Below are positions 22,549 to 53,077 of a DNA stretch of 64,000 nt, in pieces. Position 1 is the first letter of the stretch. Each line of letters opens with the position of its first letter. The position numbers and the translations under genes were made by a program. The stretch comes from Verrucomicrobium sp. BvORR106 (GTDB lineage Bacteria > Verrucomicrobiota > Verrucomicrobiia > Verrucomicrobiales > Verrucomicrobiaceae). Under the pieces are notes generated by a model. The model made no database searches. It had not been told where the DNA came from and saw only the letters and a program-made list of their open reading frames with translations. Location: NCBI RefSeq assembly GCF_000739655.1, contig NZ_BATR01000075.1, positions 1 to 64,000 of the forward strand, given 5' to 3'.

Positions 22549-22644
22549 CGCTGAAGAGACGGCTAACGTGGGCGCGAGGGCGAAAGGTGAATCAGGTGCC
22601 AATAGGATCAGGGCAGCGGGGTGGCGAAACCGTGTGGAGTGGAG

Positions 22645-22663
22645 ACACTTGCACAAAGAAAAA
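22645..22663 (-). promoter_or_regulatory. Shared 19-bp upstream motif, copy A
   Basis: ACACTTGCACAAAGAAAAA (plus-strand reading), 97 bp upstream of the TIR-nSTAND1 start. It matches copy B at 25272-25290 at 17 of 19 positions. Candidate operator or promoter element shared by the two TIR genes. Confidence 0.35.
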
Positions 22664-35297: not shown

Positions 35298-37202
35298 ATG
35301 AGCGATGATATTGAGGTCGTACTGGGCAATGCACAGTCGACCCTGGACAAAGCCGCCACCTTGCTCGGGACTCTGGCCGTCAGGTTCGCGCCTCCTGGCG
35401 GCCAGCCTGCAGCGGTTGAGCAGTTCTGGATGACGCCGCGCCATGCGCTGGAGCTGTATCGCTATCTGAAGGCATATCGCGATCGGCTGGAGGGGTTCCA
35501 CACCAGGCTGAAGAAGGAGCATGCCGCAGGTACCTCACCTTCCGCGCTCTACATTCAGTTGCTGGACGATCAGCGCTTCGAGCTGGAGACCGCCCGCGAA
35601 TTCGTACAGGAGGCCTTCATCAAGCCGCGTACTTCCGGGACACGTCCGCTCGCTCTGGAGGTGGCAGACTGGATCTGCGTGGAAGGCTTCCAGCTCTTTG
35701 TCAAAAAGTACACCGAACGGAAGTCGGGCGAGGAGTCAACACCCGCCGTCAGTGCGCAAAACTATCCCCTGGGGCCCCTGGTGGCCATCGACTCCCGGCG
35801 GACCCCTGCCGTGTGGGATGATGATACCCAGCTCAGCATTCCCTCCCTCTTCGATCTCACCGCCCGGGTCATGCGCACCCCCCAGAGCTCGCTGAGCGGT
35901 CTCGCCGTCTTCCCCGTCATCACCTTGCCTGCGGATCTGTCCGAACTTCCGGAGTACTACGCCCTGCTCTCACATGAGGTCGGGCACGCCGCCGATGCCG
36001 CCTTCGGCATCACGAAACTCATCCTGGCAGAGATTGGGAAGCAGGCGGCAGGCTTGCAACGCCTGGACTATTGGAGGGCCTGGATGCGGGAGATCGTGGC
36101 CGATGCCGCCGGGGTCGCCCTTTCGGGGGATGCGTTCGCCCTCGCCTGGTGGCGTTACGTCATGCCCTTGAAGCGGCAGAGGGATCTCACCTGCAGCAAT
36201 GCCTATCCACCCACCTTGCTGCGGCGTGAGTTCATCCGCCAGATGCTCGCCAGCCGTAGTGAGCTTGCTCCCGCTGTACCGCCGGAGTTTCCTGAGCTCC
36301 CACCAGGAGAGCTTCCTGAGTATCATCCTTTCAAGGAGGAGTTCGCAGCATTCGTTTTGCCACAGTTGCAGCAGTGCATCTTTGCTGCCGTGCCCGACCC
36401 CGTCGCCGAGGAGTCCTTCGTGCGGGCGTCCGCTTTGGCTGGAGATGCCTTGGTGGTAGACGCCAAGAAACTTTGGGAGCGCAAGCCGCTTCGTGCGCTT
36501 CCCTCCGTGATCACCCAAGCCGTCGGCCGGGTGGCCGACTACTACTCCTGGGGGAGCCTGCACCACTGGCACGAAGCCTACAAGAGGCAGAACAACGTGC
36601 CCGGCTGGCACACCCAGACCACCAGCAACTGGGCCTTCACCAAGGACTATCTTCCCAGCCTTCGCCCCACCATCATGGGGACGGATGGCGTCACCAAGTT
36701 CCCCCCCAGGGTCCTCCTCCTCAACCACCACAAGATCGCCTTCCTCGGCGCCACGCAGAAGTGGCTGCTGAAGGCCCTGGAGGAGACGCTCCTGCTCCGG
36801 AAGGAGCCTTGGGAGTCCATGGAGATCTACTTCGCCTCAGACTCCCTCCTGGAGTCCGTGGAGTACCACAGCCCCCGTGGCCGGCGTCGCACCGTCAGGA
36901 GCGTACGGCATGAGCGGGACAAGGTGATCTCCCGACTGAAGACGTTCTTTCAGCGAACCCCCCGCTGTTGCAAGCGCGTCCGGTTTTACCTGTTCAACGG
37001 TCCGCCGGTGTTCGGCTCTTTCTGGGACTGGGACCAGCCCGGCGGCCGCATCCACATCAGCTCCCAGCTCGCCGGCGTCTGCCTCAGCAAATGCCCCGCC
37101 ATCGACCACATCTGGCTCCAGGACACCCCCACCTTCACCTATGAGCAGTACCGCAAGTGCCTCCGCAACATCCGCTCCAGGTCGGTGCCTGTGTCACTTT
37201 GA
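35298..37202 (+). CDS. Zinc metalloprotease-like protein (HExxH)
   Basis: 634 residues. LSHEVGHAADAAFG near 223-236 gives an HExxH zinc motif, and MREIVADAAGVAL near 262-274 gives the downstream Glu-x-x-x-Asp of gluzincin type. The flanks are helical, with a C-terminal domain of about 250 residues containing Trp and Arg clusters and no recognised fold. No signal peptide or TM. Third gene of the lipase-protease operon, 6 bp after the metzincin. Specific family not recognised; the peptidase call rests on the two motifs. Confidence 0.65.
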   Translation: MSDDIEVVLGNAQSTLDKAATLLGTLAVRFAPPGGQPAAVEQFWMTPRHALELYRYLKAYRDRLEGFHTRLKKEHAAGTSPSALYIQLLDDQRFELETAREFVQEAFIKPRTSGTRPLALEVADWICVEGFQLFVKKYTERKSGEESTPAVSAQNYPLGPLVAIDSRRTPAVWDDDTQLSIPSLFDLTARVMRTPQSSLSGLAVFPVITLPADLSELPEYYALLSHEVGHAADAAFGITKLILAEIGKQAAGLQRLDYWRAWMREIVADAAGVALSGDAFALAWWRYVMPLKRQRDLTCSNAYPPTLLRREFIRQMLASRSELAPAVPPEFPELPPGELPEYHPFKEEFAAFVLPQLQQCIFAAVPDPVAEESFVRASALAGDALVVDAKKLWERKPLRALPSVITQAVGRVADYYSWGSLHHWHEAYKRQNNVPGWHTQTTSNWAFTKDYLPSLRPTIMGTDGVTKFPPRVLLLNHHKIAFLGATQKWLLKALEETLLLRKEPWESMEIYFASDSLLESVEYHSPRGRRRTVRSVRHERDKVISRLKTFFQRTPRCCKRVRFYLFNGPPVFGSFWDWDQPGGRIHISSQLAGVCLSKCPAIDHIWLQDTPTFTYEQYRKCLRNIRSRSVPVSL

Positions 37203-37337: not shown

Positions 37338-40300
37338 ATGCCGAAACCAACCAAACGCCCGACAAAGCCGAATCTGGGTACCGTGGTCATCGTCGCGCTT
37401 CAAGAAGAGTTTGGGCACTTGTTCCACGACAGCAAGCTGAGAAGAAAGAAGGCGATGCCCGCCAGGCTCGGCGTTTGGTATGAGCTTGAGCTCGAACCTG
37501 GCGTCAAAGTCAACGTCACCTTCATCGGGAGAATGGGTTCGGCGGAATCCATCGCCTTTACCACAAAGTTGCTGGAGAACTACCGGGCTGATGTCATCGT
37601 CAACATCGGAGTCTCAGGCAGCTTCAACCATGATGTGAAGCTTGGTGATGTCGTTTGTGCCAGCTTGACGGACCTCTTTGCTGAGGCTGGAGCCATTGAG
37701 GAGGTTGAGGGGAAAACGGTTCTCCGGCCCTCAGGAATACCGCTCAGGACGGAAGACTTCAAAGCCCTGGTCGACAACCTTCCGTTCGAGCACAAGATCG
37801 AACACGCAGATTGGGTCAGAGCATGCGCTGGTAGACGAAAGAAGATTTTGGGAGGGAGGGAAAATGCTGTTCCGCCTGGTCTGCTTGGGAAGGAAGTCAA
37901 GGTGCTGACTGGGCACCTGGCCTGCGCTGGGGAGGTGGTAAAGTCAGCGGTATGGAAGCAAGGCATTCTGCAGCGCGATCGAAAGTATCTTGCCATCGAC
38001 ATGGAGTCCGCCGCCATCGCATTCGCCGCAGATGAGGCCAGGGGGGCAGGGTGCAAGTTGCTCGTAGTTCGGGGCATTTCTGACTTCGCAGATGCAAGGA
38101 AGGACCAGATCGACGCAGTTGGGCTCGATGATGGGAATGCCATCCGGCAGTGGGCCCTGGGGAATGCGCTTGGAGTCGTCAAGATGGTGTTGAAAGCATC
38201 AGCTAGAGGCGGCGGTAGACGCGTGCCGCTGATCAATGATGTGGTGCATCGGCTCAATGCCAAGTGTGAGCCGCACCTGGATCACAAGACTCTGCAGCTC
38301 TACAAGCGCAATCCAGACACAGTCCTGGCTGATTATGAGATCCTGTTCAATCTGCTGCTGGATGGTGAGACACCATTCGAAGGGTTTCACACAAAGCTGG
38401 AGTCCCTCGAGTCGATGACTCAGGGCAATTCGGAGCTGGCTGTCGTGGGAGGTTATCCTGGCACTGGGAAGTCTTCCCTTTTGACCTGCTTCTATCTCAC
38501 CCAGTTGGAGCGCTATCAGAAAGGGGAGTCACGCATGCTCCCCATCTGCGTTAACATCCGCAACCTTCTTCCTGAAGACCAGGCTGATCCACCTTCTGAG
38601 CAAGAGGTCGTGGAGAACTTCGCCAGGCTGTTCAAAGAACTGGTCTTTGGGGCGGCGCATGAGGCGCACAGCGACAGCCTGCTCCTCATTGTGGATGGCT
38701 GCGACAGTTACCTGAGGCATCCGATGCAGTCCATTCTTGACGGAGAGCTCCGCCGTCAGTTGGCGGCAGTGCATGAGCACTGCAAAACGGTCAAGCTCGT
38801 AGGAGCTGGCATCAGGGATTCATCACCGGCAAGTGCGCTCGCTGCAGACATGCTCCAGTGGGCCGACAAGGAGACGATGCTGCACCTGGGGCGGGTGAGA
38901 AGCGACAGTCCCAAACTGCCTGCCGTGATCGATGCTTACACAAAAGTAAACGCAGGCGAGGGGGCTGCACCCCTGGTGAAGCAGATTCGGGAACTCATCG
39001 TCAAATGCCGTACTGCCGAGGTGGACTTGTTTGTATTGTCCCTCTTAACCATGGCCATACGCAGGCACTGGCATCAAAAGGAGGCGGGCATCGGCTCATT
39101 GTACTTTGACTATTGTATTGAGCAGGTCAATGCATCAGCGCCAGGAACTCTCTCAGAAAGCATCACGAAGCAGGTGCTTAAAAAGCTCGCGAAATCGGTT
39201 TTTGATATCTACGCAAGAAGGGTTGGCCTGACGTACAAAGACTACTACGTCCCAGGCGTTCCGGACAATCTGGTGCGGCAAGTGCTGGCGGTCATTCCCC
39301 ATTTGCACTCCAGTTTGAGGGAGTTCCTCATCGCAGAGCATGCCGTGGAGCTGCTTTTGAGCGGGGTGGTCGCGGAAGACATCAGCGACAGCGTCATCTA
39401 CCCGTACGGTATCAACAGGTTTGTGCGGGCCATTATCAATCGATCCACGGAGTCTCAGGTCGAGGCGATTCACAGCATCAGACTCATCCTCGACCAGGGG
39501 CCGCCCATCAAGCAAAAGACCCACCTGGCTTATGTCCTGGGCCGGTTTTCTGATACTGGGTGTTGCCGGGTGGCGATATCCATCTTGAATGAACTGCGCA
39601 GAACGTTCCCGAAGAGCCTCCCTGAGATGCAAGAGCGTGTTCTCGAGGGTCCCGGGGAGGAGGAGGGGAGGCGCATGCTGCTGCTCCACAGAACCATTTA
39701 CATCAGTCTCATCTACCTTGGCAATGAAACTGCAGCAGAAGAATACTTGAAAATCCTGCTGAGCTATCCCGTTTGTGACAATCTAAACCGGGGTTTTCAC
39801 CTCCAGTACTACGAGGATCAGTCTTTGCCGCCTCCGGCAGACGACATGATCGGATTTGATGATGTTCGAATTGTGCCTCGAAACACTTTTGAAGTCCTTG
39901 CCGAGAAGCTTGAGGGAGATGTGAGAAGTGGGAGGAAGCGGGCCATGACGTTTGTAGAACTGCATACGATCTGTTCGCTCTGCATCAACCGGCACGTGGC
40001 AGGGGTGTTGCCATCAGACATTCGCCAACGTTTGCTGAAGCTGGTCCAAGAAACGCTGGCCCGCCAGTTCACGGACCTGACCAAGGCCTTCACAGCATTC
40101 CTCCATCAAACTTTGGACATGCTTAAGAAGGGGCAGGTAAGCATCGGGTCGATCTTTTCAGAGCTTCATGCGCTGAAGCGCCAAAAAAGAGCGGGTTGGA
40201 CAACTCCTCGAACCACTGAGGATGGGGTGACCTATCACAGGCAGTGCAAGGATCCAGAGTCAGTCGCAGACCACACGTGGGGATGTCTGTTGATTGCCGA

Positions 40301-40781
40301 CGCCTTTCTTCCCGAGATATCTCCTGACGATGAAGGGTACGACAAGTTGACGATTCTAAGGACGCTGCTGATACATGATCTTCCCGAGACCTACACTGGG
40401 GATATTCCATCTTTCCTGAAGACAAGTGACGATTTAGTCAAGGAGGAGAGAGCCATGGGTAAGATTGTCTCTTTGTCTGCTCTTGCTGAGTTCAGGGGAA
40501 TTGCAGGTTGGCGGACCATCTGGACTCAGTTCAAGGAACTCAGCACGATCAACGCAAGGATTGCGGCAGACATCGATGCCTTGGAGGGGTATCTCCAAAT
40601 GTTGAGGTACCACTGGGACGATGATGCGGTCGTCGAAGATGCGCAGTCATGGGCCGAAGGAGTGTCCAGTCGGCTGTACACGGTGCAGGGAAGACGCATC
40701 TTCAAGAACCTGAGGCACGAGGGCGCTGACTCGCTAAGCTGGTTCAAGGAGACATCTAGAGACTCGAAACCGACTCGCTGA
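37338..40781 (+). CDS. PNP nucleosidase-P-loop NTPase-HD nucleotidase fusion
   Basis: 1147 residues from ATG 37338 (a GTG at 37278 would add 20). Residues 11-290 are a purine nucleoside phosphorylase/MTA-SAH nucleosidase domain with VALQEEF, GVSGSF, the DMESAA substrate-binding Glu and ISDFAD with the catalytic Asp. A STAND/NACHT-like NTPase follows: Walker A GYPGTGKSS near 371-379, Walker B LLLIVDGCDS near 446, then helical repeats. Residues 960-1145 are an HD hydrolase of YfbR/HDDC2 type: SVADHTWG (His), LLIHDLPETYTGD (His-Asp, Asp), and IAADIDALEGYL (Asp). YfbR relatives remove phosphate from deoxynucleoside monophosphates; PNPs then cleave nucleosides. A switched enzyme that empties the nucleotide pool is inferred. 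PNP-NTPase combinations are known in conflict systems; the HD addition is what I do not recognise. Confidence 0.8.
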   Translation: MPKPTKRPTKPNLGTVVIVALQEEFGHLFHDSKLRRKKAMPARLGVWYELELEPGVKVNVTFIGRMGSAESIAFTTKLLENYRADVIVNIGVSGSFNHDVKLGDVVCASLTDLFAEAGAIEEVEGKTVLRPSGIPLRTEDFKALVDNLPFEHKIEHADWVRACAGRRKKILGGRENAVPPGLLGKEVKVLTGHLACAGEVVKSAVWKQGILQRDRKYLAIDMESAAIAFAADEARGAGCKLLVVRGISDFADARKDQIDAVGLDDGNAIRQWALGNALGVVKMVLKASARGGGRRVPLINDVVHRLNAKCEPHLDHKTLQLYKRNPDTVLADYEILFNLLLDGETPFEGFHTKLESLESMTQGNSELAVVGGYPGTGKSSLLTCFYLTQLERYQKGESRMLPICVNIRNLLPEDQADPPSEQEVVENFARLFKELVFGAAHEAHSDSLLLIVDGCDSYLRHPMQSILDGELRRQLAAVHEHCKTVKLVGAGIRDSSPASALAADMLQWADKETMLHLGRVRSDSPKLPAVIDAYTKVNAGEGAAPLVKQIRELIVKCRTAEVDLFVLSLLTMAIRRHWHQKEAGIGSLYFDYCIEQVNASAPGTLSESITKQVLKKLAKSVFDIYARRVGLTYKDYYVPGVPDNLVRQVLAVIPHLHSSLREFLIAEHAVELLLSGVVAEDISDSVIYPYGINRFVRAIINRSTESQVEAIHSIRLILDQGPPIKQKTHLAYVLGRFSDTGCCRVAISILNELRRTFPKSLPEMQERVLEGPGEEEGRRMLLLHRTIYISLIYLGNETAAEEYLKILLSYPVCDNLNRGFHLQYYEDQSLPPPADDMIGFDDVRIVPRNTFEVLAEKLEGDVRSGRKRAMTFVELHTICSLCINRHVAGVLPSDIRQRLLKLVQETLARQFTDLTKAFTAFLHQTLDMLKKGQVSIGSIFSELHALKRQKRAGWTTPRTTEDGVTYHRQCKDPESVADHTWGCLLIADAFLPEISPDDEGYDKLTILRTLLIHDLPETYTGDIPSFLKTSDDLVKEERAMGKIVSLSALAEFRGIAGWRTIWTQFKELSTINARIAADIDALEGYLQMLRYHWDDDAVVEDAQSWAEGVSSRLYTVQGRRIFKNLRHEGADSLSWFKETSRDSKPTR

Positions 40782-40900
40782 CCGTCCATTCACTGCTCTG
40801 GCCCCTGTCAGCTCTGGGGTTTGTTTACATAGTATCAAAGTAGTGCTTGGATCTCCCGATTCCTCCGGGAATTGCACTCGAACACATTTTTTTGCAAACT

Positions 40901-43348
40901 ATGGCCACTCCGTCCTCGCTGCCGCCGCCCGTCCGTATCTACATTCTCTGGCATCCCGGGCTGGACCAACGTGAGGAGTTCAAGGGGCGCGATCTCAAAA
41001 AGCTCACGCCGCTGGAGTTGGCCACCCATCTGCGTGGCCTTTCTCTGGCCAGGCGCCTCTACTACTGGTTCCGCCTGGAGAATATGGAGGGTATTCCTGT
41101 TTACTTCCGCAGTACCCCGGAGAACGCCAGCCTGGGGGAGACGCCGCCGCCCATTCCCGAGGACCCCGGAGTCCGCAACTACATCATCCCCCTCGTTGAT
41201 GCCACTATGGTCGCCAGCCCGGACTGGCGGGCCTACGTGGCGCACTATGCCGCCAAGTCCTCCCGGCAGCCCGACGCCGCTCCGCTCAAGCGAAACAGCC
41301 CTGCCACCTTCCGCCTGCTGCCCGTGGCAGTGGAGCCGGTGGCCTACAACATGCCGGAGTCCATGCGAAAGCTCAACTTCCTCAGACACATCACCCCTGC
41401 AGGCATGGTCCCGGAGGATGCCGAGCTCATTGCGCGCATCACCGAAGTGCTCTGCCGGGACATGCGCGCCTGGTGTCATCCTTCAGATAAGTCCCTGGAG
41501 AAACCCGCGAACAAACGCAAGGCAGCCGCGGTGCCGGAAAAGATCAAGATCTTCCTCAGTCACGCCAAGGCGGACGACACGGAGGAGGCCATCACCCTGA
41601 AGCAATACATCCAGAGGGAAACGCAATGCGAAGCCTTCTTCGATGAAACAGACATCGCCTCAGGGTATGACTATACCACCATCCTGGACACCGCCGTCAC
41701 CCGGGAGTCCGCAGGGCTCATCGTGATCCAGGGCGACAACTACGCCGACCGCCCCTGGTGCCGCAAGGAGATCCGTGATTTCCTGAGACCCGTCGAGGAT
41801 TCATGCGGCGCGGGAAAAGGGCGGCAGTACTTCGTCGCGCCAGCCGTGGTGGTGCAGACCATGAAGGGCAAGCAGATCGCGCGCACCATCCCTGAACTCG
41901 GGTACTCACCCTGTGTGCGCTGGCAGGATGCCCAGTCAGCACGTTTTGTCATCACCACCCTGCTGCGGGAGATTCTATTCGGCCTCTTTTACCGTCGCCT
42001 GGCCGCCAAGTATGCCGCGCTGCAACCGGGATCACGCAAAGTGTTTCTCAATCGCAGCCCGGACCCGGTAATGATTGCTCGCATCATGGCCACCCCGGAG
42101 ATGAAGAGCCTCGCCGCCAGCCCCCAACCAGTCTCCTTCATCCACCCGGGCTACGGTTTGAGCAACATGGAGAAAGACGGGCTGAAGGCATCCTTCCCCC
42201 GCTACTACTTCAGATCCTTCAACGAGAGTTCAGGAAAGTACAAAGCACCAGATCTCAACTTGCGGGGAAGGATCATCTCCATCTCCGTAGGGCATTCGGA
42301 GGAGATCCTCAACACCGGTTGCTGGAGCGAGCACACCCAGGAGATACTGCTGCGCTTCATGAGACCACTGCTGCGGGCCCAGGCCTCCCTCCTGTACGGT
42401 GGGAGGCTGCCGGAGTCCTTCCGCCCAGCCGAGCCTTGGAAGGAAGAGCTCAACTTCACCGCATCGCTTTTGCAGCTCCTCCTGGCGGAGCGCGACGTCA
42501 CCACCAGCACGCTGCAGGCGCCACCCCGGCTGTACGTCCCCATCCGCCATCACGGGGGGGATCAAATAGATGCCCAGAAAATCGCTCAATGGACGGACAT
42601 CTGCTCCTTCGTGAAGGTGCCTGCAAAAGACTGGCAGGTGGGGGCTCCGTTCGATGACAAAACCCGTCCCCAACCCCTCACCGAAGTGGAGCTCGCTAAA
42701 ATGCCTGAATCTGAGCGGGAGCGGGCCAAAGAAGCGCGGCAACAACTGGCGAAGGCCTTCGAACCCGCTCGCAATGCCATTGCGCTCACCATCATGCGCC
42801 GGCGGATCTGCGGCATCGGCGGGAACCTCACCTGCAAATTGCCCGATCCTCCCCTGGGCAGCGCTGGCGGCAATAACCAGGAGATCGACACCTCTGCCCA
42901 CCTGCTCATGGGGGGCAAGACTGAGGGCTTCACCGGATGGATGCCCGGTCTCTTTGAGGAAGCCCTGTACGCCATCAAGCAAAACAAACCCGTCTTCCTG
43001 ATCTCCGCCGCGGGAGGCGCCGCAGGGATGCTCGCAGAGTGGTTGCTGCACCCACCCGCCAAGCAGCCTCCGCAGTTGACGGTGGACCATTACATCGAGC
43101 ATGATCCCGTCTACGCGCGCATGTTTGCCGGCATCACTGCTGCAGATTTGCAGGTGGCATGCAAAGCCTTCTGTCAGGACATCATGGATGCTCTTTGGGA
43201 GCGCGTAGAAAGTGTGAGGGATGCCACCAAACTGGGTGAGCTCCTCAAGAACGGTCTGACATGGGAGAAGAATCTCGAGCTGCTGGAAGCAAAAAACACC
43301 GGCAGGATCTGTCAGCTCGTATGGGAGGGCATGGAAAAGCAACCTTAG
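40901..43348 (+). CDS. TIR-like/TIR/SLOG fusion protein, second copy
   Basis: 815 residues from ATG 40901; a TTG at 40847 would add 18 weak residues. Residues 8-165 are a TIR-like domain (RIYILWHPG, KLNFLRH). Residues 215-340 are a TIR: KIFLSHAKADD, FFDETDIASG, and PWCRKE near 283-288 with the catalytic-site Glu. Residues 455-810 are a SLOG-type domain with RIISISVGHSEE, LLYGGRLPE and MPGLFEEALYA, then a Gly-rich AAGGAAG. Same architecture as the gene at 11801 but with long insertions in the SLOG part. It follows the PNP-NTPase-HD gene on the same strand by about 120 bp, so that protein is a candidate effector. The stop codon overlaps the inverted repeat of MITE copy 4. Confidence 0.8.
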   Translation: MATPSSLPPPVRIYILWHPGLDQREEFKGRDLKKLTPLELATHLRGLSLARRLYYWFRLENMEGIPVYFRSTPENASLGETPPPIPEDPGVRNYIIPLVDATMVASPDWRAYVAHYAAKSSRQPDAAPLKRNSPATFRLLPVAVEPVAYNMPESMRKLNFLRHITPAGMVPEDAELIARITEVLCRDMRAWCHPSDKSLEKPANKRKAAAVPEKIKIFLSHAKADDTEEAITLKQYIQRETQCEAFFDETDIASGYDYTTILDTAVTRESAGLIVIQGDNYADRPWCRKEIRDFLRPVEDSCGAGKGRQYFVAPAVVVQTMKGKQIARTIPELGYSPCVRWQDAQSARFVITTLLREILFGLFYRRLAAKYAALQPGSRKVFLNRSPDPVMIARIMATPEMKSLAASPQPVSFIHPGYGLSNMEKDGLKASFPRYYFRSFNESSGKYKAPDLNLRGRIISISVGHSEEILNTGCWSEHTQEILLRFMRPLLRAQASLLYGGRLPESFRPAEPWKEELNFTASLLQLLLAERDVTTSTLQAPPRLYVPIRHHGGDQIDAQKIAQWTDICSFVKVPAKDWQVGAPFDDKTRPQPLTEVELAKMPESERERAKEARQQLAKAFEPARNAIALTIMRRRICGIGGNLTCKLPDPPLGSAGGNNQEIDTSAHLLMGGKTEGFTGWMPGLFEEALYAIKQNKPVFLISAAGGAAGMLAEWLLHPPAKQPPQLTVDHYIEHDPVYARMFAGITAADLQVACKAFCQDIMDALWERVESVRDATKLGELLKNGLTWEKNLELLEAKNTGRICQLVWEGMEKQP

Positions 43349-43482: not shown

Positions 43483-45417
43483 TCAGTGCTCCCTGAAGAG
43501 CTTGGGCGCATCAGGCAGCTTTGCCAGGTTCAGCTCCAGTTGCGTCTCGCCATTGTCTGCCTCCACGCCCACGGTGAAGGCGCCATAGGCATGGAGGACG
43601 GCTTCCACCCTGTAGACTTCCCCTTTTGCGTCATCGACCTCGACCACCTCCTTGTCGGGTTCGAACGACGGGTGCAGGTGAAAATTGACCCTGCCTTTCA
43701 GCGGATCCTTGTTGGTGCTGGACACCACCAGTTTAATCTCGAACCAGTACTTGGAGATGGCGGAGACGGTGGCCGTCAGGCGGCGTCCGTTTGCCATGGC
43801 GCGTCCGCCCCACCGGCCCCGCTGGGGATCATCCGGGTCAATAGGCTGGGAGGCTAGCTTCAGTTGCCTGGCTGACCTTGTAAAGGGTTGAAGGCCCTGC
43901 ACCAGTCCCTCCAGATCGGATTTGAACGTCTTCTGTGAGATGGTGCGGCCCCGTACCTCCCGGAGGGGCTTGGGGAGGTCGCTCCACTCCGTGGTGTCAT
44001 GCATGATCACGGGCACCAGCGCCTTGCCCGCGCTGCGGGCTATCTCCAGCTCACGTGCCGTGTTGGCAGATTCCAGCCAGGCCGGACCGACGAAGAACAG
44101 AACGCAGGTGGCGGCCTCCAGCTCCCGATCCAGCCAGAGGTCCCAGCGCTCTGCCAGGGGGATCTTGCCATCCCACACAATGCTTTCCTCACCCAGCGCC
44201 ATCTCCAGGAATCCCGCAATCTTGCGCATCGTCTTTTCTTCGACGTCTCGCTGGCAGTAGCTGAGATAGAACTTTGGCGGCCGGGTTACCGTCCGGTTCT
44301 CGGAGAAAGTGGCGTAGCGCGCACGGAGGTTGTGCTGCTCCCGGGATGACAGTGATGGGAGCTTTTTGATCTGGCCCTCCGTGATCGCCTGCGTCAAGTT
44401 CAGCATCGCTGCCAGCAGGCTGGAGCGCAGCTCTGGGCGATCCGCCACCGTGGCCAGTATTTCCTCGTACGCGTAAAAGGGCACGTAGGGGATCTCCACC
44501 TGCGCCCAGTAGGATTCCCGCATCTTTCGCATCACGGTGCGCTGGAGGAAGGGGGCAAACGTCTCCCGCGCCATGGTGCGGGCGGCCTCCAGTCTCTCCT
44601 TCTCATTCTCATCCACCCGTGTAGCCACCGGCCAGACGCGCAGGGTGGATTCCCCCGTGCCCTTGCGCCTTTGCTCCACGGCGGACTGTGCCGCCGCCGC
44701 CGCTCCCATGATGCTCTGGCGGTTGAGGGTGAAGAAGACCACCAGCTCTCCCGGCATCTGCACTGTGCAGATGCCGGCGGTGTCACTCAAGCCCGTGCGA
44801 CTGTCGATGAGGATGTAGTCATAGTCCTCCAGGAGCTGCTTCTTCACGGCCTCCAGGAACACCCCACCGCCGAGTTTCTGGTAAAAGTCCGTCCAGTCAA
44901 AGGAACCCACCCGGATGCCGTAGGAGGGTCCCTGGCGACCGGCGGGCACGAAGTCGATCGTGCCAGGGGAGGGGAATTCGTGATCCAGGGAGACTGCACA
45001 TCGGAGCAGGTCGGTGTAGTCCTCGTACCACAGGGATTCAGTTTCCTCCTCCTGGCCCTCGCTTTGCCGTTGTTTGCGCTTCTGCATCCGTGCCGCCTCG
45101 GCGAATTCGCAGAAGAAGTCGATGAGGCCGTCACTACGCAGCAGCTCAGGATCTTGCAGGAAGGGGCGGAAGTAGCGGTGCAGACCCGGAGCCTCCAAGT
45201 CCCAGTCTATCACCAGCACCCGCTTGCGGTTGCTCGCCAGGATCCAGGCCACATTGGCCAGCGCCATGGAGCGGCCCGTCCCGCCTTTGTATGAATAGAA
45301 CGTAAAGATGCGGTCGCGTTCAGGAATCTCCACAGCAGGCGGGGGCTGAACTAGCAGCCCCATCTTCGGGGCGACCTTTTTCGCCTTGCGGGCGGGCGCT
45401 TTTTTCCGTGTAGGCAT
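43483..45417 (-). CDS. KGGTGR-motif ATPase-TIR-pYEATS protein
   Basis: 644 residues. Residues 35-330 are a ParA/MinD-like ATPase with the variant Walker A YSYKGGTGRSMALAN near 43-57, VLVIDWDLEAPGLHRYF, and DYILIDSRTG; this is the KGGVGR-type ATPase of conflict and FxS systems. Residues 378-510 are a TIR (FYLSYCQRD, WLDRELEAATCVLFFVG, ANTARELEIA with a conserved Glu). Residues 540-640 match a prokaryotic YEATS domain: WFEIKLVV, VNFHLHPSFEPD, GAFTVGVEAD, LELNLA. The N-terminus is Lys-rich. It follows the FxsC-like TIR gene by 13 bp in an operon. The ATPase could gate the TIR, with pYEATS as a ligand or protein reader. Confidence 0.8.
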   Translation of the reverse strand: MPTRKKAPARKAKKVAPKMGLLVQPPPAVEIPERDRIFTFYSYKGGTGRSMALANVAWILASNRKRVLVIDWDLEAPGLHRYFRPFLQDPELLRSDGLIDFFCEFAEAARMQKRKQRQSEGQEEETESLWYEDYTDLLRCAVSLDHEFPSPGTIDFVPAGRQGPSYGIRVGSFDWTDFYQKLGGGVFLEAVKKQLLEDYDYILIDSRTGLSDTAGICTVQMPGELVVFFTLNRQSIMGAAAAAQSAVEQRRKGTGESTLRVWPVATRVDENEKERLEAARTMARETFAPFLQRTVMRKMRESYWAQVEIPYVPFYAYEEILATVADRPELRSSLLAAMLNLTQAITEGQIKKLPSLSSREQHNLRARYATFSENRTVTRPPKFYLSYCQRDVEEKTMRKIAGFLEMALGEESIVWDGKIPLAERWDLWLDRELEAATCVLFFVGPAWLESANTARELEIARSAGKALVPVIMHDTTEWSDLPKPLREVRGRTISQKTFKSDLEGLVQGLQPFTRSARQLKLASQPIDPDDPQRGRWGGRAMANGRRLTATVSAISKYWFEIKLVVSSTNKDPLKGRVNFHLHPSFEPDKEVVEVDDAKGEVYRVEAVLHAYGAFTVGVEADNGETQLELNLAKLPDAPKLFREH

Positions 45418-45430
45418 GGCTGGGGGAGGC

Positions 45431-46609
45431 TTAGGCAGACGTTGTCACCGAGCCCGTCAGGCTGGCCTTGGTGGCAGTGGTGATGCCGCGGCTGGCAGCT
45501 GCATTGGCCAAGGCTTCGTTTTGCACGGTCGCGCCCGCATCACCGTTGATCAGGCTGAGCCGCACGCGAGTTACAATCTTTTCCACTTCTACGGTGACAT
45601 TGCCAGGCAGCGTGGAAGAGACGTGCTGGAGCTTGGCGGCAGCATGGAAGTTCCCTTCAGGCAGTCCTGCCAGCCAGTCCGCCACGGAGCGGGGCGTCTG
45701 CCCTGGTGCGGTCTTGCCGTCCACCAGGAGCAGGGCTAGTGGAGCCCCCTGGGGAAGCCCGTGCAGCTGCGCCAGTGCACCGCCCGGCGGGGTGTTTGCG
45801 TCTGCAATCACCAGCAGGATCTGGCGTTCGTTTTGTAGGACAGAGATCTGTGAGCCCAGTAGTGCACTCGGATTGAAGCCATGCAGGGAGACTCGCATCA
45901 GGGCCGCAGATGCCGCCACCTCCTGGCAGATGGGGCGCCCCACGCCGGAAGGCAGCCACGCCTCACCACCGGGTACTGCAAACCAGGTGTGAATATCGTA
46001 CGGGCGGGGCTGGTCCATGAAGGCATTCGCCACGGTCGCAAAGTCCACCTTGATGGTCGGCAGCTTGGACCGGGATGACAGTGCGGTACGGATGTTAGTC
46101 ACCAACGCCTCGACAAAGCTCTTGAACGCATCACGATATTTGCTGAGGTCGGCAAGCTGCCGCAGGCCTCCCTTGTACCCTCTAGGGGAGTCGAAGGTGA
46201 CGGCTTGAAACTTGCTCAGCTTGTCGGGCAGGGGCCGGAATGGATCGCGCTCCCACCATACAGGAAAGACAAAGGTCGCTTGCCCTGCCCTGCCGGGGTT
46301 GCTGGACTCCCACTGCGTATGGCGCTGGTGAAACACCTCCAGCTCCTGCCCGCACCAGGGGCTGTTGAGGTAGGTGGGAGACACCAGGCATACCAGCAGC
46401 TCTGCCTCGCCCGCCTCATCGGCCAGCGCCTGCGTCCAGACATTGCCGGGTCTGATGCCTCTGAAATCAAAGAACACTAGTTTTTCAATTTCCTCAGCCT
46501 CATAGGCACCCACTTTCGTGCGCAGCACTTCATGGAACAGTTTCATGAACTTCTCCATCTGCGTAGAGCGGTCCAGCACAGCGTAGCTAGTGAATACTCG
46601 GTGGGGCAT
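45431..46609 (-). CDS. TIR-domain protein, FxsC-like
   Basis: 392 residues. Residues 3-165 are a TIR (RVFTSYAVLD, VFFDF, LVCLVSPTYL, SPWCGQELE with the catalytic-site Glu). Residues 190-360 look like the alpha-beta C-terminal domain of FxsC-type TIR-like proteins, with VANAFMDQPRPYDIHTWF and ILLVIADANTPPGG. The tail is Ala/Thr-rich and disordered. It is the first gene of an operon with the KGGTGR ATPase-TIR-pYEATS gene. Divergent from the small TIR gene at 46833; the shared 220-bp gap should contain both promoters. Confidence 0.7.
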   Translation of the reverse strand: MPHRVFTSYAVLDRSTQMEKFMKLFHEVLRTKVGAYEAEEIEKLVFFDFRGIRPGNVWTQALADEAGEAELLVCLVSPTYLNSPWCGQELEVFHQRHTQWESSNPGRAGQATFVFPVWWERDPFRPLPDKLSKFQAVTFDSPRGYKGGLRQLADLSKYRDAFKSFVEALVTNIRTALSSRSKLPTIKVDFATVANAFMDQPRPYDIHTWFAVPGGEAWLPSGVGRPICQEVAASAALMRVSLHGFNPSALLGSQISVLQNERQILLVIADANTPPGGALAQLHGLPQGAPLALLLVDGKTAPGQTPRSVADWLAGLPEGNFHAAAKLQHVSSTLPGNVTVEVEKIVTRVRLSLINGDAGATVQNEALANAAASRGITTATKASLTGSVTTSA

Positions 46610-46832
46610 GGCAACGGTACGAAAAGGGAAGGAGGCTCGTCCTGCGCGATCTCAGGAATGAGATAGCATTAGCCGGTGCATGGTGGCAATATTTTTACCA
46701 CGAAGCGCAAAAAGTTTTTGTAGTTGTAAGCGTAAACCGAAAAGCCTGATGGGGTGGCGTCACTGAGACAAATTCTTTCTCTTTCACAGGTTGTGGATGT
46801 TCTGCGGAGGAGTATAGTTTTTGCATCCCACC

Positions 46833-47396
46833 ATGGCAGGAAGAAACCTATTTCACGAATCCCAGCCTGGAATAAAGATGGCTGGAGCTTCTGGCCCGTG
46901 TGTTTTTATTGCCCACAGGAAGAAGGATCGTGATAAGGCGGTTGAGGTGGGTAGAATAATCAAAACGGCCGACATCGACATCTACTTGGATGAGGATGAT
47001 AAACCGTTGCAAGTCGCGGATGCGGTCAAAGATCATCAGAAAGTGGTCGAGTACATAGAGGCTGGACTGAGTAAAAGTACTCATTTTCTTGGGGTTATCA
47101 CGGACAATACCGTGGGCTCATGGTGGGTTCCGTTTGAGTTTGGAATGGCCAAGAATGTGGGACTGGCGTGCGCACACTTGATTACCAAGGAGGTGAAGGA
47201 GCTGCCTTCCTTCATCCAGGTTTCCAGAATTCTGTGCAACGATGGATTGGTGGTGGCATGGGTAGAATCGCTTAGGCCGTTCTTGAAAGAGGCGACGACA
47301 GGCAAATTGAATCAGGTCCTTACTGAACTGGCGGTGACGCTTTTGCCATTTCTTCCTCAGAGTCGTCCTCTCAGTGATCTCAAATTTGTCGACTAA
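46833..47396 (+). CDS. Stand-alone TIR protein
   Basis: 187 residues from ATG 46833 (an upstream TTG adds four residues). TIR features: CVFIAHRKKDRDKA, IDIYLDEDD, an insertion with KDHQKVVEYIEAGLSKS, LGVITDNT, and SWWVPFEFGMA with the catalytic-site Glu. The first 25 residues are an extension. Size and layout resemble ThsB-type TIR synthases of Thoeris. Divergent from the FxsC-like gene and convergent, 11 bp apart, with the DUF4062-STAND gene. Confidence 0.75.
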   Translation: MAGRNLFHESQPGIKMAGASGPCVFIAHRKKDRDKAVEVGRIIKTADIDIYLDEDDKPLQVADAVKDHQKVVEYIEAGLSKSTHFLGVITDNTVGSWWVPFEFGMAKNVGLACAHLITKEVKELPSFIQVSRILCNDGLVVAWVESLRPFLKEATTGKLNQVLTELAVTLLPFLPQSRPLSDLKFVD

Positions 47397-47407: not shown

Positions 47408-50400
47408 CTAAGCCTCTTTAGCCCGGCTCGCCTTCTCCAGGATCATTCGCAGCCTCGGGTCCGCCACCGCCCCATCCGCTCCCGCGTGCGCTCGTGCAGC
47501 ATCTGCCGCCTCCTGAAGCCGGGCGTTCGCTTCCTCCTCCCGCCCCTGGGCGCGCAGCAGTTCGGAGAGGTTATAGAGGTCAACAGCAATGGCAGGGTGG
47601 GAGTCGCCCAGCGTGGCCTGGTCCGCGGTGATGGCCGCACGGTACAGGTGCCCGGCCCGGCGGAGGCGGCCCATCTGCCAGTAGATCTGCGCCAGATTGC
47701 CCAACCTCGTGCCGAGCCGATGATGGCGGTGCCCCAGGGCCTTGCGGTCAATTGCCATGGCACGGCGCATTGCGAGCCGGGCCGTGCCCTTGTCGCCATC
47801 CTCCTGAAAGACGCGGCTGATGTTGTTCCACGTGGTGGCCAGGTCGGGATGCTCCGGGCCAAGAGTGTCCGTCTGAAGCTGTAGAGCGCGGGAGTTAAGC
47901 CGGAGCGCCTCCGCCAGGTTGCCCTGCTCCCGGGCCACCAGGGCGAGATTGAGGCACGTGGCCGCGATGCGCAGGTGGTCTCCACCGCGCAGCGCCTCAT
48001 CCAGTTGGAGGGCCTTGCGAAGATGCTCCTCCGCCTCCTCCAGGCGGTGCAGATCCAGCAGCACCAGGCCCAGGTTCGCATGGCCATCCGCCACCTCGCT
48101 GTGAGCTTGGCTGTAGGTCTCCTCATCGTTGCCCAGGGATTCCCTCAGCAGACTTTCTGCGGAGGCGAGGTCTCCACGCATCCGCAGCAGCAGGGCCAGA
48201 TTGTTCAAGTCTCGCCCCACGGCCGGATGCTTAAGGCCGAACACGGCCTGGTCCGCCTGCAGCGCCGCGCGAAAGCACGCCTCTGCTTCCTCGAACCGTC
48301 CCAGCTCCTGCAGCGACAGGCCCAGATTGCTCCGCATGATGGACGCCTCCGGGTGATTCGGGCCTCTATTGGGGTGAGCTTCGATGATGGCCAGCGCCTC
48401 CCCGTAGGCAGTGATTGCTTCCTCGTACCTGCCCATGCGCCACAGCAGCACCCCCTGGTTGCTGCGGGTGGAGCCGGGCTGGGGGTCGAGATTGCCCGCG
48501 GGCGGAAGCTGGTCTTCGAGTTCGCGAACCAGGGTCAGGTGGTGCTGTGCTTCAACGTACTTGTGCCTGTCCACATAGAGGGCGGCAAGATTGTTGTGCA
48601 GCGTGGCGGCAAGGCTGAGACTGGTGGCGTCGATTCCCGTAACCATCGACAAAGCACGCTGGTAGTGAGCTAAAGCGATATCGGGAGCATCCAGCCGCTC
48701 TGCCACCGTGCCCAGGTTGGACTCCAGCGAGGCTATTTGCTCATGGAGAGGTGGGCTGCTCCGGTCGTAGAGTCTTAGTGCCCGCTGCATGCAGGCTTGC
48801 GCCTCCAGGTAGGCGGCCTTCCGCATGAGCAGTACGCCGAGCTGACTAAGCAGCCAGGCGGTGGGGCGGGGGATGTCCAGAAGCTCGGCCCAATGGGCCA
48901 GGGCGAGGATGTGAGGGCGCAGAGGCTCCCACACTGGCCAGGCGCGAGGTTCGTGAGGATTGCCGGTGGCAAAGCCACCCACGGCCTCAAGGCAGTCCGT
49001 GATGAAGGGATGTCGGTCCCCTGGCTCAGGCAGGTGGTGACGGGTGACTTCTTGCACCAGGAGGTGGACTTGAACCATGTCTTCTCCCGTGATGCGCAGC
49101 AGGGAGTAGTGCCGCAGTTCAGTCACGGCCAGTGTGGGAGCGGTGTGCCCCACATTCAAGCGGTCAGCCAGAATCCTGGTCATGGTCTCACCGATGAAGA
49201 TGCGACGGGGGGCTGGGTCCGGTGCGAACCAGCAGAGCATCTTCAAGAGTGATCTGGCTCCCTCGCTCAGTTTCTCGAAGCTGGTCGCCCAGGTGGTCAT
49301 GACGCTCCGGGGATAGCGCATGAGGTCTTCGTTGAACCACTTTTGCACCAGGCCGTCCTGCCGCCGCCAGAGTTCGAGGTATTCGTGGAATGTCAGGCCC
49401 TGGACGTTGATGTAGGCGCCGGCCTGTTCCAGAGCCAGGGGGAGGGTGCCCAGTACCTGTGCCAGGGTTGAGGCATTCGGTTCATCCTGACCGGGTTCAT
49501 GTTTGCGGGTGCTGCATTTTTCCAACAGAAAGGCGGTGGCGGCCTCCAGGGCCAGGGGGTGGAGCTCCAGTGCCTGTACGCCCTCCTCCCAGCCTGCCAG
49601 TCGGCTAGTGATGATCACATGGCCCTGGCTCAGGCGAGGCAGCAGGGCGCGTACGGCGGTTGCAGCCTCTTCACTGTCCACGTTGTCCAGGATGAGCAAC
49701 CACCCCGGCTCGCGCTCCAGCCAGTGCACCACGGCTTCGCGCTGGCGTGCTTCGTCCCACTCCGAGGGCGGACTGAGAGCCAGCGCCCGTGGATGTGCTA
49801 GCTGGCTCAGTCCAGCATCCAGGCTGGAGGGAGTGTCCGCTGTGACGAAGAGCACCGCCTGGTATTCGTCTCCATGGGCCAGGGCGTACTCCACTGCCAG
49901 GCGCGTCTTGCCGATGCCACCGAGCCCGTAAAGGGTATGGCTGCCCACGAGGGCGGTCAAATTGCCCTGAGTGTGCAGATGAGAATGCAGGGACTCCATC
50001 GCGGAGTCGCGCCCTTTGAAAAGGGGGCCCAGCGTGCCGTAGGGCAGTGCCACGACCTTGCGGGGCCGCTGGGGGACTTGGGTGGGGAAGTCGATTCTTT
50101 GTATCAACTCCTCGAACTGAGCCAGGTCTGCGAAGCCATGATGCAGCGCGTCCACCTTGGCCCCTGCGACTTCCATACGGTGCCGGGCCTGTAGACGTTG
50201 GCGGTCTTCAGACTCCGGGAGGAGGTGGGCGCCTCCAGCCTCAAACGCTGGCGCGGTCACAAAGACATAGCGGGCCTTGGACAACTGCCGAGCGAACTCC
50301 CACTCGATCTGTGCATAGGAGTGCCGGGGCACCCCTGGGGGAAGGTTTGTGGGTTCGCTCCCGTACCTCGTGCCGACAATGAAAAGCACGGCGTCGCTGA

Positions 50401-50575
50401 TCTGGATGAATTCCCAAAGATGGCGGTTGATCGCCACATAGTCCAGGGTGGCAAATTCCTCTTCGACGATGACCTCCACCCCTCTCTCTTTCAGGATGCG
50501 GGCGGCTGTTGTCCTGCAGTGATGCAGGTCAGCCGTAGTGGAGCTGATGAAAAGGCGAAATGGGCGGGTGGGCAT
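47408..50575 (-). CDS. DUF4062-NB-ARC STAND NTPase-TPR protein (NLR-like)
   Basis: 1055 residues. Residues 5-105 are a DUF4062 domain (RLFISSTTADL, LFIVGTRYG, YAQIEWEFA), a TIR-fold relative used as N-terminal effector. An NB-ARC ATPase follows: LFKGRDSAM, Walker A GLGGIGKTRLA near 214-224, Walker B WLLILDNVD near 295, VIITSRLAGW as the sensor region. TPRs fill about 600-1030, with many 42-residue kinesin-light-chain-like units (LNNLALL, ATCLNLALV). The order matches animal and plant NLRs and the FxsT-type TPR partner of FxS clusters. The FRG gene upstream (50680-51504) is co-oriented, 104 bp away. It may be regulated with the KGGTGR-TIR pair nearby. Confidence 0.85.
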   Translation of the reverse strand: MPTRPFRLFISSTTADLHHCRTTAARILKERGVEVIVEEEFATLDYVAINRHLWEFIQISDAVLFIVGTRYGSEPTNLPPGVPRHSYAQIEWEFARQLSKARYVFVTAPAFEAGGAHLLPESEDRQRLQARHRMEVAGAKVDALHHGFADLAQFEELIQRIDFPTQVPQRPRKVVALPYGTLGPLFKGRDSAMESLHSHLHTQGNLTALVGSHTLYGLGGIGKTRLAVEYALAHGDEYQAVLFVTADTPSSLDAGLSQLAHPRALALSPPSEWDEARQREAVVHWLEREPGWLLILDNVDSEEAATAVRALLPRLSQGHVIITSRLAGWEEGVQALELHPLALEAATAFLLEKCSTRKHEPGQDEPNASTLAQVLGTLPLALEQAGAYINVQGLTFHEYLELWRRQDGLVQKWFNEDLMRYPRSVMTTWATSFEKLSEGARSLLKMLCWFAPDPAPRRIFIGETMTRILADRLNVGHTAPTLAVTELRHYSLLRITGEDMVQVHLLVQEVTRHHLPEPGDRHPFITDCLEAVGGFATGNPHEPRAWPVWEPLRPHILALAHWAELLDIPRPTAWLLSQLGVLLMRKAAYLEAQACMQRALRLYDRSSPPLHEQIASLESNLGTVAERLDAPDIALAHYQRALSMVTGIDATSLSLAATLHNNLAALYVDRHKYVEAQHHLTLVRELEDQLPPAGNLDPQPGSTRSNQGVLLWRMGRYEEAITAYGEALAIIEAHPNRGPNHPEASIMRSNLGLSLQELGRFEEAEACFRAALQADQAVFGLKHPAVGRDLNNLALLLRMRGDLASAESLLRESLGNDEETYSQAHSEVADGHANLGLVLLDLHRLEEAEEHLRKALQLDEALRGGDHLRIAATCLNLALVAREQGNLAEALRLNSRALQLQTDTLGPEHPDLATTWNNISRVFQEDGDKGTARLAMRRAMAIDRKALGHRHHRLGTRLGNLAQIYWQMGRLRRAGHLYRAAITADQATLGDSHPAIAVDLYNLSELLRAQGREEEANARLQEAADAARAHAGADGAVADPRLRMILEKASRAKEA

Positions 50576-50679: not shown

Positions 50680-51504
50680 TCAACCTCTCGGTTTGTAATG
50701 TCGGGCCAGCCATTTGCACAGTCCATCCAGCCCGGGCATCAATACACGCTCGGTGATGTTTGACTGGTCGAGTTTGTCCCGGACTTCCCACTTCAACCCC
50801 GAAGGAATCACTATCTTGACTGCATCCACTTTGCCAGCCACTTGTGGACGGGCCAACCATTCATTCATTGTTAGAGTTGGGTCGCTCATCACCGAAAAGT
50901 AGGCGAATTGGTTGACTATCCTGTCGTCGATTGATGGGGGCTCAAAGAAGATGACGGCGTCATCCTGAGGTTTGTGCAGCCTGTCCAGCTCCTCAGTGGT
51001 TTTGAGGGTGTCGTAAAGCGTGTCTACGGTAAAAATCTTTGCTCCAAGAGAGTCCAGTGCGGCGGTGAGATGGCTCATTAGAAGGGCGTGGACGTCCGCG
51101 AAGTTCACCTTCCAGATGGATCCGTCCAAGTGGAATTTCGAAAGGTCGGCTGTGGCAAAATGAAGGGCCACCATCGGCGAGTAGGTCCAGTCGAGAAGCC
51201 GGGTTGGCAGCCCATGGTGTTGAGCCACGCTCAACCAATGCCAGTCTGTATCGCGCTCCACCAGATCCCGGTGACCATACTTTTTGAACTGTTTGAGCAA
51301 ATTCTTTTCCATGTTTTCATATGGCTCCCCCAGTCTTGAAAGGCTGTTGTTGAGCTGAAACGAAGCATCGTCGAGCCCGCGATATGCAAAGGTGGAGCGC
51401 CATCGCTTGATTTCGCGGTTCCAGGTCTGGTCAAAAAGTAGATCCTGGAGTTCAGACCAGCTTTCGACGGCTACTGTTTTGATGCCCTTGGATGCCATGC
51501 CCAT
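50680..51504 (-). CDS. FRG-domain protein
   Basis: 274 residues (ATG 51504; a second ATG two codons on). The FRG signature is clear: FAYRG near 38-42, WLSVAQHHGLPTRLLDWT near 91-108, PMVALHFA just after. The rest is alpha-beta without recognised motif. FRG domains (named for the Phe-Arg-Gly motif) occur in toxin and anti-phage settings and are suspected enzymes, with no established reaction that I can cite. It precedes the NLR-like gene on the same strand. Confidence 0.8.
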   Translation of the reverse strand: MGMASKGIKTVAVESWSELQDLLFDQTWNREIKRWRSTFAYRGLDDASFQLNNSLSRLGEPYENMEKNLLKQFKKYGHRDLVERDTDWHWLSVAQHHGLPTRLLDWTYSPMVALHFATADLSKFHLDGSIWKVNFADVHALLMSHLTAALDSLGAKIFTVDTLYDTLKTTEELDRLHKPQDDAVIFFEPPSIDDRIVNQFAYFSVMSDPTLTMNEWLARPQVAGKVDAVKIVIPSGLKWEVRDKLDQSNITERVLMPGLDGLCKWLARHYKPRG

Positions 51505-51820
51505 AGAAAGGGATGATGAAACTGCATGACACGGTGTGTCAAACGAACGTTGGAGGGTTGTTGCTTCAGCGGTCGGTGGCGTTGTGCTGGAGAGTTCGCA
51601 TATCGTGTCTTTGGAATCTGCTAAGACTCAGGCCGTTGAAGGTGGATGCAGGTTCCGGAACCGGCCGAGTGGGGTGGAATCTGTTCTTGGTTATGTTGCG
51701 GCATGCACTAGAAAGTGCCGGCTTGAAAGCTGTGGAGAAAATTTGCTTGATGGAATCATGGAACTCTTGAGGTTGTCGGATGACGGGGTCGCAGGAATGG
51801 TGCCCTGGTCACTGACTCCA

Positions 51821-53059: not shown

Positions 53060-53077
53060 AATCTTGAAGCTGCCCCT

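What the first reader, a model, noticed from the sequence alone, without database searches (positions are those of the whole stretch)
37338..40781. One polypeptide with PNP-type nucleosidase, P-loop switch and HD nucleotidase
Both enzymatic ends keep their catalytic residues by eye (DMESAA and SDFAD in the PNP part; DH, HD, TGD and the last Asp in the HD part). A YfbR-like nucleotidase makes nucleosides that a PNP then cleaves, so the order suggests a two-step nucleotide-pool drain gated by an NTPase. PNP-NTPase proteins are described in conflict systems; I do not know of the HD addition. It lies beside a TIR-SLOG gene that could supply the trigger.
Basis: partly seen in the sequence, partly recalled or inferred. 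Interest (0 to 1): 0.8.

Follow-up and report, generated by a model that had tools for sequence, protein, structure and literature searches.

The report
Immune-like receptor with nucleotidase tail
A bacterial protein joins a nucleotide-cleaving enzyme, a molecular switch and a second nucleotide-processing enzyme; its few relatives keep the second enzyme but exchange the first, so it looks like a small family of immune-type receptors rather than a two-step nucleotide shredder.

Summary
One 1147-aa frame (37338-40781, +) carries a PNP/nucleosidase domain (aa 16-256), a NACHT/STAND-like P-loop NTPase (about 357-583), a helical region (about 660-940) and an HD_3 phosphohydrolase domain (945-1097). 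All seven catalytic residues published for HD phosphohydrolases are present, and the HD model superposes on human HDDC2 (Z 17.6) and YfbR (Z 15.0). What changes is the reading. I found three relatives. The helical+HD module is constant (4 of 4 loci); the N-terminal effector is not: PNP-STAND-helical-HD (window), TIR-STAND-helical-HD (between hsdS and hsdR), TIR-helical-HD (no STAND), and STAND-helical-HD with a predicted membrane protein just upstream. The four HD domains group together (100/100) against ten stand-alone HD_3 proteins. The HD is therefore not specifically a partner of the PNP, which weakens the two-step drain. The HD sits where such receptors carry their sensor. Most likely this is a rare NLR-like conflict protein whose exchangeable effector destroys nucleotides or NAD+, with an apparently active HD sensing or editing a nucleotide signal; that last step is inferred. 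No SLOG gene was seen beside the relatives. New variant of a known kind.

The parts
37338..40781 (+). Whole gene: PNP - STAND NTPase - helical region - HD_3 (1147 aa)
   Evidence: single copy in the genome
37383..38105 (+). PNP/nucleosidase domain, aa 16-256; exchangeable N-terminal effector slot (TIR in two relatives)
   Evidence: PF01048 E 1.1e-16; nearest named families MTA/SAH nucleosidases
38406..39086 (+). STAND/NACHT-like P-loop NTPase, aa about 357-583; Walker A at 38451-38474, Walker B at 38685-38705
   Evidence: family scores below cut-offs in this protein
39315..40157 (+). Helical region, aa about 660-940, conserved in all four family members found; ARM-like solenoid at best
   Evidence: Alignments A3/A4; in the module model 22 of the first 29 ten-residue blocks have pLDDT 70 or more; weak SARM1-ARM match Z 7.2
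40170..40628 (+). HD_3 phosphohydrolase domain, aa 945-1097: R951, H979, H1013, D1014, E1017, D1022, D1080
   Evidence: PF13023 E 8.5e-20; residues invariant in 4 of 4 fused and 10 of 10 stand-alone HD_3 rows; HDDC2 Z 17.6, YfbR Z 15.0

Best explanation
This is an NLR-like (STAND) conflict protein, probably anti-phage. The N-terminal PNP-superfamily nucleosidase is the toxic effector; by analogy with PNP effectors of other defence systems it would cleave (d)ATP-like nucleotides. The P-loop NTPase is the switch. The constant C-terminal helical+HD module sits in the sensor position. The HD domain looks catalytically competent and most likely binds and hydrolyses a (deoxy)nucleotide whose level or form changes on infection; occupancy would license, and hydrolysis reset, the switch. 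Shown here: domain order, retained active-site residues, HD fold, effector exchange (PNP or TIR) on a constant module, grouping of the fused HDs apart from the stand-alone ones compared, and one relative embedded in a type I restriction locus. Inferred: defence function, switch-controlled activation, PNP substrate, HD substrate, and HD acting as sensor rather than as second effector.
For: Four loci share helical+HD; the N-terminus differs: PNP, TIR, TIR, none fused. The C-terminal place is where STAND receptors carry superstructure or sensor domains (general knowledge). HD: 7 of 7 published catalytic residues in 4 of 4 fused copies; six of them all invariant has hypergeometric P 2.9e-5 given 29 of 153 invariant columns; HDDC2 Z 17.6, YfbR with dAMP Z 15.0. 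Fused HDs group together, 100/100. HD_3 is not a household gene here: 4 of 68 family genomes have one and 3 of those 4 are this module. L008 copy lies between hsdS and hsdR. PNP effectors in NLR-like systems with (d)ATP degradation are listed in a review (PMC10952713, passage).
Against: No experiment. L003 lacks the STAND altogether, so the module can work, or decay, without it. HD as sensor rather than effector rests on position and on effector exchange only. Four members were found. The window's STAND scores are below Pfam cut-offs, and structurally the NTPase model matches Avs4 (Z 8.5, rmsd 19.5) and RdrA (Z 8.3) no better than generic AAA+ ATPases (Z 8.6 downwards). Foldseek on the whole module model gave HDDC2 only E 1.9e-3 (probability 1.00), with 0 matches at E 0.001 or below. 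PNP fold not modelled. PNP substrate unknown: its nearest families are MTA/SAH nucleosidases, far below the equivalog cut-off (56.8 against 169 bits). The Prevotellaceae relative lies on a contig without evident defence genes by eye, truncated at its end.
Confidence: 0.45

Rival explanations
1. HD is a second, independent effector: once the protein is activated, PNP (or TIR) destroys ATP-like nucleotides or NAD+ while HD removes phosphates from dNMPs or dNTPs and starves phage DNA synthesis. HD need not feed PNP.
For: Full HD active site and nucleotidase fold. Weak match of the window HD to the phage dATP triphosphohydrolase family phrog_7076, 6.7e-6 (the L008 and L009 proteins have no PHROG match there). 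HD is listed among potential enzymatic effectors in C-termini of metazoan NCOA6-clade TRADD-N proteins (PMC8195603, passage).
Against: The HD is constant while N-terminal effectors vary, and it sits opposite the usual effector end. An always-on nucleotidase would need its own gating.
Confidence: 0.22
2. One reading: HD makes nucleosides that PNP then cleaves, gated by the NTPase.
For: Both active-site signatures present in one chain. A separate PNP gene lies 5 kb from the TIR-helical-HD gene in L017, so the pairing is not excluded there.
Against: The other 3 of 4 loci have HD without PNP in the same protein. PNP effectors of defence systems are reported to act on (d)ATP (PMC10952713, passage), so HD products would not be required.
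Confidence: 0.1
3. HD is mainly an assembly platform: HD phosphohydrolases can form hexamers, so the module clusters effectors; catalysis trims a regulatory ligand or is incidental.
For: DatZ is a hexamer and the authors propose the same for other HD phosphohydrolases (PMC8065100, passages). It would explain TIR-helical-HD without STAND (L003).
Against: All catalytic residues are kept over 32-46% identity, which a pure scaffold does not need. Oligomer interfaces were not tested.
Confidence: 0.13
4. Not defence: a metabolic or stress regulator of nucleotide pools in these bacteria.
For: PNP, TIR and HD all concern nucleotides or NAD+ (established knowledge of the families).
Against: Sporadic spread (3 of 68 family genomes), TIR and PNP exchange, location between hsdS and hsdR, surroundings rich in TIR/SLOG/STAND genes.
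Confidence: 0.1

Closest known systems
PNP-superfamily effectors in NLR-like systems, CBASS and Detocs (Cap17 in PMC10952713, after Rousset et al. 2023)
   Same: PF01048 domain as putative effector, linked to a STAND-type NTPase; PADLOC PN-superfamily effector model matches (2.4e-8; best PADLOC match is the candidate family PDC-M60C, 2.3e-11)
   Different: No TIR/PNP-associated SLOG domain found in the protein; a C-terminal HD is not mentioned in the passage read
HDDC2 / YfbR / DatZ HD phosphohydrolases (HD_3)
   Same: Fold (Z 17.6 HDDC2 and 15.0 YfbR) and 7 of 7 catalytic residues
   Different: Usually a stand-alone protein of about 200 aa (35 of 36 matching Bacteroidota genomes, open frames 193-278 aa); here the C-terminal domain of a receptor-like protein; N1072 in 4 of 4 fused against E in 10 of 10 stand-alone rows
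Avs / bNACHT-type STAND defence proteins
   Same: Order effector - P-loop switch - helical C-terminal region; Avs4 and RdrA appear among structural matches of the poor full-length model (Z 8.5, 8.3), tied with generic AAA+ ATPases
   Different: A catalytically equipped HD enzyme at the C-terminus; the STAND profile matched only this locus in 288 phylum genomes
TRADD-N and other conflict proteins of Kaur et al. 2021 (PMC8195603)
   Same: Exchangeable TIR/PNPase effectors; an HD domain listed as possible C-terminal effector in metazoan NCOA6-clade proteins (passage)
   Different: Those HD proteins are metazoan and carry Death-like and TRADD-N domains; no such domain appears in the Pfam scan here

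Membership tests
HD_3 / HDDC2-YfbR HD phosphohydrolases | Scores above the family cut-off | tested here: met
   PF13023 71.7 against 22.5 bits
HD_3 / HDDC2-YfbR HD phosphohydrolases | Metal A (H,H,D,D), metal B (E,D) and transition-state Arg as mapped in DatZ | tested here: met
   H979, H1013, D1014, D1080; E1017, D1022; R951, in 4 of 4 fused copies (residue roles from PMC8065100; the correspondence to DatZ is by motif, DatZ itself was not aligned)
HD_3 / HDDC2-YfbR HD phosphohydrolases | Fold | tested here: met
   HDDC2 4dmb Z 17.6, rmsd 3.3, 177 aligned; YfbR 2pau Z 15.0, rmsd 3.0, 176 aligned; Foldseek best E 1.9e-3, probability 1.00
HD_3 / HDDC2-YfbR HD phosphohydrolases | Nucleotidase activity and substrate | not testable with these tools
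   Needs assay
YfbR-like (PF12917) | Scores above the family cut-off | tested here: not met
   23.9 against 25.9 bits
PNP superfamily (PF01048) | Scores above the family cut-off | tested here: met
   61.3 against 25.1 bits
MTA/SAH nucleosidase | Scores above the equivalog cut-off | tested here: not met
   NF004079 56.8 against 169 bits
Cap17-type ATP nucleosidase effector | TIR/PNP-associated SLOG domain (PF18178) with the PNP | tested here: not met
   No such match listed for the whole protein at E up to 1
Cap17-type ATP nucleosidase effector | (d)ATP cleavage | not testable with these tools
   Needs assay
STAND / NACHT NTPase | Walker A and Walker B motifs | tested here: met
   GYPGTGKS 372-379, LIVDGCD 450-456; Walker A shared with L008 and L009
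STAND / NACHT NTPase | Scores above a STAND/NACHT family cut-off | tested here: inconclusive
   Below cut-offs in the window protein and in L008; NACHT above cut-off in L009 (30.6 against 26.7)
STAND / NACHT NTPase | Ligand-triggered oligomerisation | not testable with these tools
   Needs biochemistry
Anti-phage defence system | Protects from phage | not testable with these tools
   Only context: L008 between hsdS and hsdR, island of TIR/SLOG/STAND genes

The most novel reading that the evidence does not exclude
A family of bacterial NLR-like receptors uses a working HD nucleotidase as its C-terminal sensor: the enzyme both reads and erases a (deoxy)nucleotide signal of infection (for example dNMPs released from degraded host DNA, or a phage-modified nucleotide), and hands the state to exchangeable effectors (PNP, TIR, membrane protein). 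It could also act as an integrated decoy of the HD nucleotidases that phages themselves encode.
Probability: 0.28. Interest if true: 0.85.

Novelty: new variant of a known kind. Interest (0 to 1): 0.6.

Why it matters
Known bacterial STAND receptors recognise phage proteins through repeat-type sensors (recalled). A receptor family whose constant end is an apparently active nucleotidase, with PNP and TIR exchanged at the other end, would mean metabolite sensing by an enzyme inside an NLR-like protein, and makes the question testable with single-residue knock-outs in one gene.

Tried and rejected
Two-step drain as best reading: downgraded after finding TIR in place of PNP. TIR-SLOG as conserved partner: no SLOG gene seen beside the relatives (not all ORFs scanned; L009 is cut at the contig end). 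No relative of the module was confirmed in viral contigs (few peptide patterns per scan); an HD-only alignment found 7 viral loci of 24 pattern matches, and in the four of these that I opened the HD ORF is a stand-alone of 173-197 aa. The helical part had no match in plasmids or phages, the PNP domain none in plasmids and none confirmed of 215 pattern matches in viral contigs; plasmid hits with the full protein cover only the HD part (15 records). L016 (E 3.8e-4) was dropped as a false hit: an unrelated frame by eye. The helical region's best non-HD structural match is the SARM1 ARM domain (Z 7.2), below the tool's own caution level for helical folds, so no kinship is claimed. The full-length model was poor (mean pLDDT 50.6), so its Avs4/RdrA matches are not used as evidence. 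The first HD tree had three misread rows of ten stand-alone sequences and was replaced, where the tool still warns of long branches meeting and the tree is unrooted. W954 separates the fused HDs from the ten stand-alone rows, but human HDDC2 shows a GW at the same distance before its ESV as L003 does, so it is not a mark of fusion. Literature searches (open-licence PMC only) showed no bacterial PNP-STAND-HD or TIR-STAND-HD protein in their listings or in the passages opened; subscription papers are not covered. L018 was fetched and not examined.
Full report
What is there. The window gene 37338-40781 (+) encodes 1147 aa without interruption. Pfam places PNP_UDP_1 at aa 16-256 (E 1.1e-16) and HD_3 at 945-1097 (E 8.5e-20); between them a P-loop region matches AAA_16, nSTAND1 and NACHT weakly, all below cut-offs. 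The gene is single-copy in its genome and holds the only HD_3 match there at E 0.001. It is the fourth of five + strand genes with gaps of 6 to 135 bases: 32077 lipase-like, 34449 metallopeptidase matches below cut-off, 35298 no family (HExxH-type motif by eye), 37338 this gene, 40847 TIR-SLOG. The gene has a lower third-position GC (0.65) than its four neighbours in that row (0.71-0.81), compatible with later acquisition but not proof.

HD part. Against solved structures the sequence is closest to human HDDC2 and archaeal relatives. A model of aa 647-1147 (7 rows, mean pLDDT 76.1, pTM 0.68) superposes on HDDC2 (Z 17.6, 177 residues) and YfbR (Z 15.0, 176 residues); Foldseek on the same model ranks HDDC2 first with E 1.9e-3, probability 1.00, and nothing at 0.001 or below. 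The catalytic map of HD phosphohydrolases from the DatZ paper (PMC8065100, passages) is met 7 of 7 by motif: H979, H1013, D1014, D1080, E1017, D1022, R951. They are the same in 4 of 4 fused copies and in 10 of 10 stand-alone HD_3 proteins compared. In L008 the Gly of TGD is Lys, but the Asp stays. Identity of the HD span among the four is 32-46%, so the active site has been kept over long divergence.

PNP part. Nearest solved proteins are MTA/SAH nucleosidases, with the ME(S/A) and SDxAD blocks aligned; NCBIfam gives the same family far below its cut-off. PADLOC's PN-superfamily effector model matches with 2.4e-8. A review lists PNP effectors of CBASS, Detocs and NLR-like systems as degrading (d)ATP (PMC10952713, passage). 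The PNP fold could not be modelled here. No close relative of this PNP was found in 66 other family genomes (1 of 67 genomes, the window's own, at E 1e-6).

Relatives. A search of 288 phylum genomes with the whole protein found one other locus: TIR joined directly to helical+HD, 622 aa, with no PNP and no STAND (G190, L003/L017). A helical-only alignment then found two more in the genome collection: L008, TIR-STAND-helical-HD in a Verrucomicrobiaceae MAG, and L009, STAND-helical-HD in a Prevotellaceae MAG (2 of 42 pattern matches confirmed; two peptide patterns, so not exhaustive). L009 runs to the contig end; three bases upstream of its start codon ends a 236-aa ORF with a strongly hydrophobic segment near its N-terminus and a marginal second one, a possible separate effector. 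Frequencies: 3 of 68 family genomes, 3 of 288 in the order; in Bacteroidota 2 of 395 passed the threshold, one being L009's genome and one judged false. In L017 a 92-aa ORF carries a 60-residue piece of a second module copy, 57% identical to L008.

One origin. In an HD tree of 14 rows the four fused domains stand on one side of a branch, 100/100, against ten stand-alone HD_3 proteins, unrooted and with a warning about long branches. In Bacteroidota, 35 of 36 genomes with an HD match have it in a frame of 193-278 aa; the exception is L009's genome. In the Verrucomicrobiaceae sample HD_3 is rare (4 of 68), and 3 of the 4 are this module. The STAND profile from the three STAND-bearing members matched only the window locus in 288 phylum genomes; L008's genome does not appear among the family genomes listed for that sample.

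Context. L008 lies between hsdS and hsdR of a type I restriction locus. L017 has an N6-methylase fragment, hsdS, a separate PNP gene, a gene with TIR-effector matches and a TIR-P-loop kinase. The window holds many TIR, SLOG, STAND and related genes. No SLOG gene was seen next to the three relatives, though not every ORF was scanned, so the TIR-SLOG neighbour of the window is probably just another resident of the island.

How it most likely works. Effector exchange at the N-terminus on a constant C-terminal module is the pattern of a receptor with interchangeable outputs. The constant part then holds the input. An HD domain with all its catalytic residues in that position suggests that the input is a nucleotide that the domain binds and hydrolyses. 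Steps shown: architecture, conserved residues, HD fold, effector exchange, grouping of the fused HDs. Steps inferred: defence role, gating, ligand, PNP substrate. Against it: one relative lacks the STAND, only four members were found, the NTPase model matches STAND proteins no better than generic AAA+ ATPases, and nothing has been measured. The main rivals are HD as a second effector and HD as an assembly platform (DatZ is hexameric, PMC8065100). The two-step drain is left at 0.1.

Novelty. The open-licence searches (listed in Tried and rejected) showed no bacterial PNP-STAND-HD or TIR-STAND-HD in their listings or the passages opened. The nearest statement seen is that metazoan NCOA6-clade TRADD-N proteins may carry caspase, PNPase or HD domains at the C-terminus as potential effectors (PMC8195603, passage). 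I rate it a new variant of a known kind.

Noticed in passing
window 11801-13858, 14760-16751, 17371-22656, 40847-43348, 43483-45417, 45431-46609, 46821-47396, 47408-50575, 50680-51504, 51536-53911: Dense island of TIR, SEFIR, SLOG, STAND, FRG, pYEATS and DUF4062 proteins: seven ORFs have a TIR or SEFIR match above a Pfam cut-off, and two more (51536-53059, 22783-25182) have sub-threshold TIR matches.
   Followed up: partly
window 47408-50575 (-): DUF4062-NB-ARC-TPR protein; DUF4062 is described as a TIR-like NADase family with antiphage function (PMC13174449, abstract start in a search listing).
   Followed up: no
window 35298-37202 (+): 634-aa protein without a Pfam match above cut-off or an NCBIfam match, with an HExxH-type motif (SHEVGH) by eye, directly upstream of the PNP-STAND-HD gene.
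   Followed up: no
L017:12355-13911: TIR domain (SpbK-like in PADLOC) fused to a P-loop kinase with weak deoxynucleoside/dTMP kinase matches, next to TIR-helical-HD; another nucleotide-handling fold tied to a TIR.
   Followed up: partly
L017:13917-14192: Short ORF whose start resembles the hsdR start of L008 (by eye) and which then continues into a 60-residue fragment of the helical module; looks like a recombination scar.
   Followed up: partly
L026:2004-2567, L027:2932-3453, L028:2908-3474: Viral stand-alone HD proteins of this family start just before the end of a thymidylate-synthase-like ORF (that identification is by eye).
   Followed up: no
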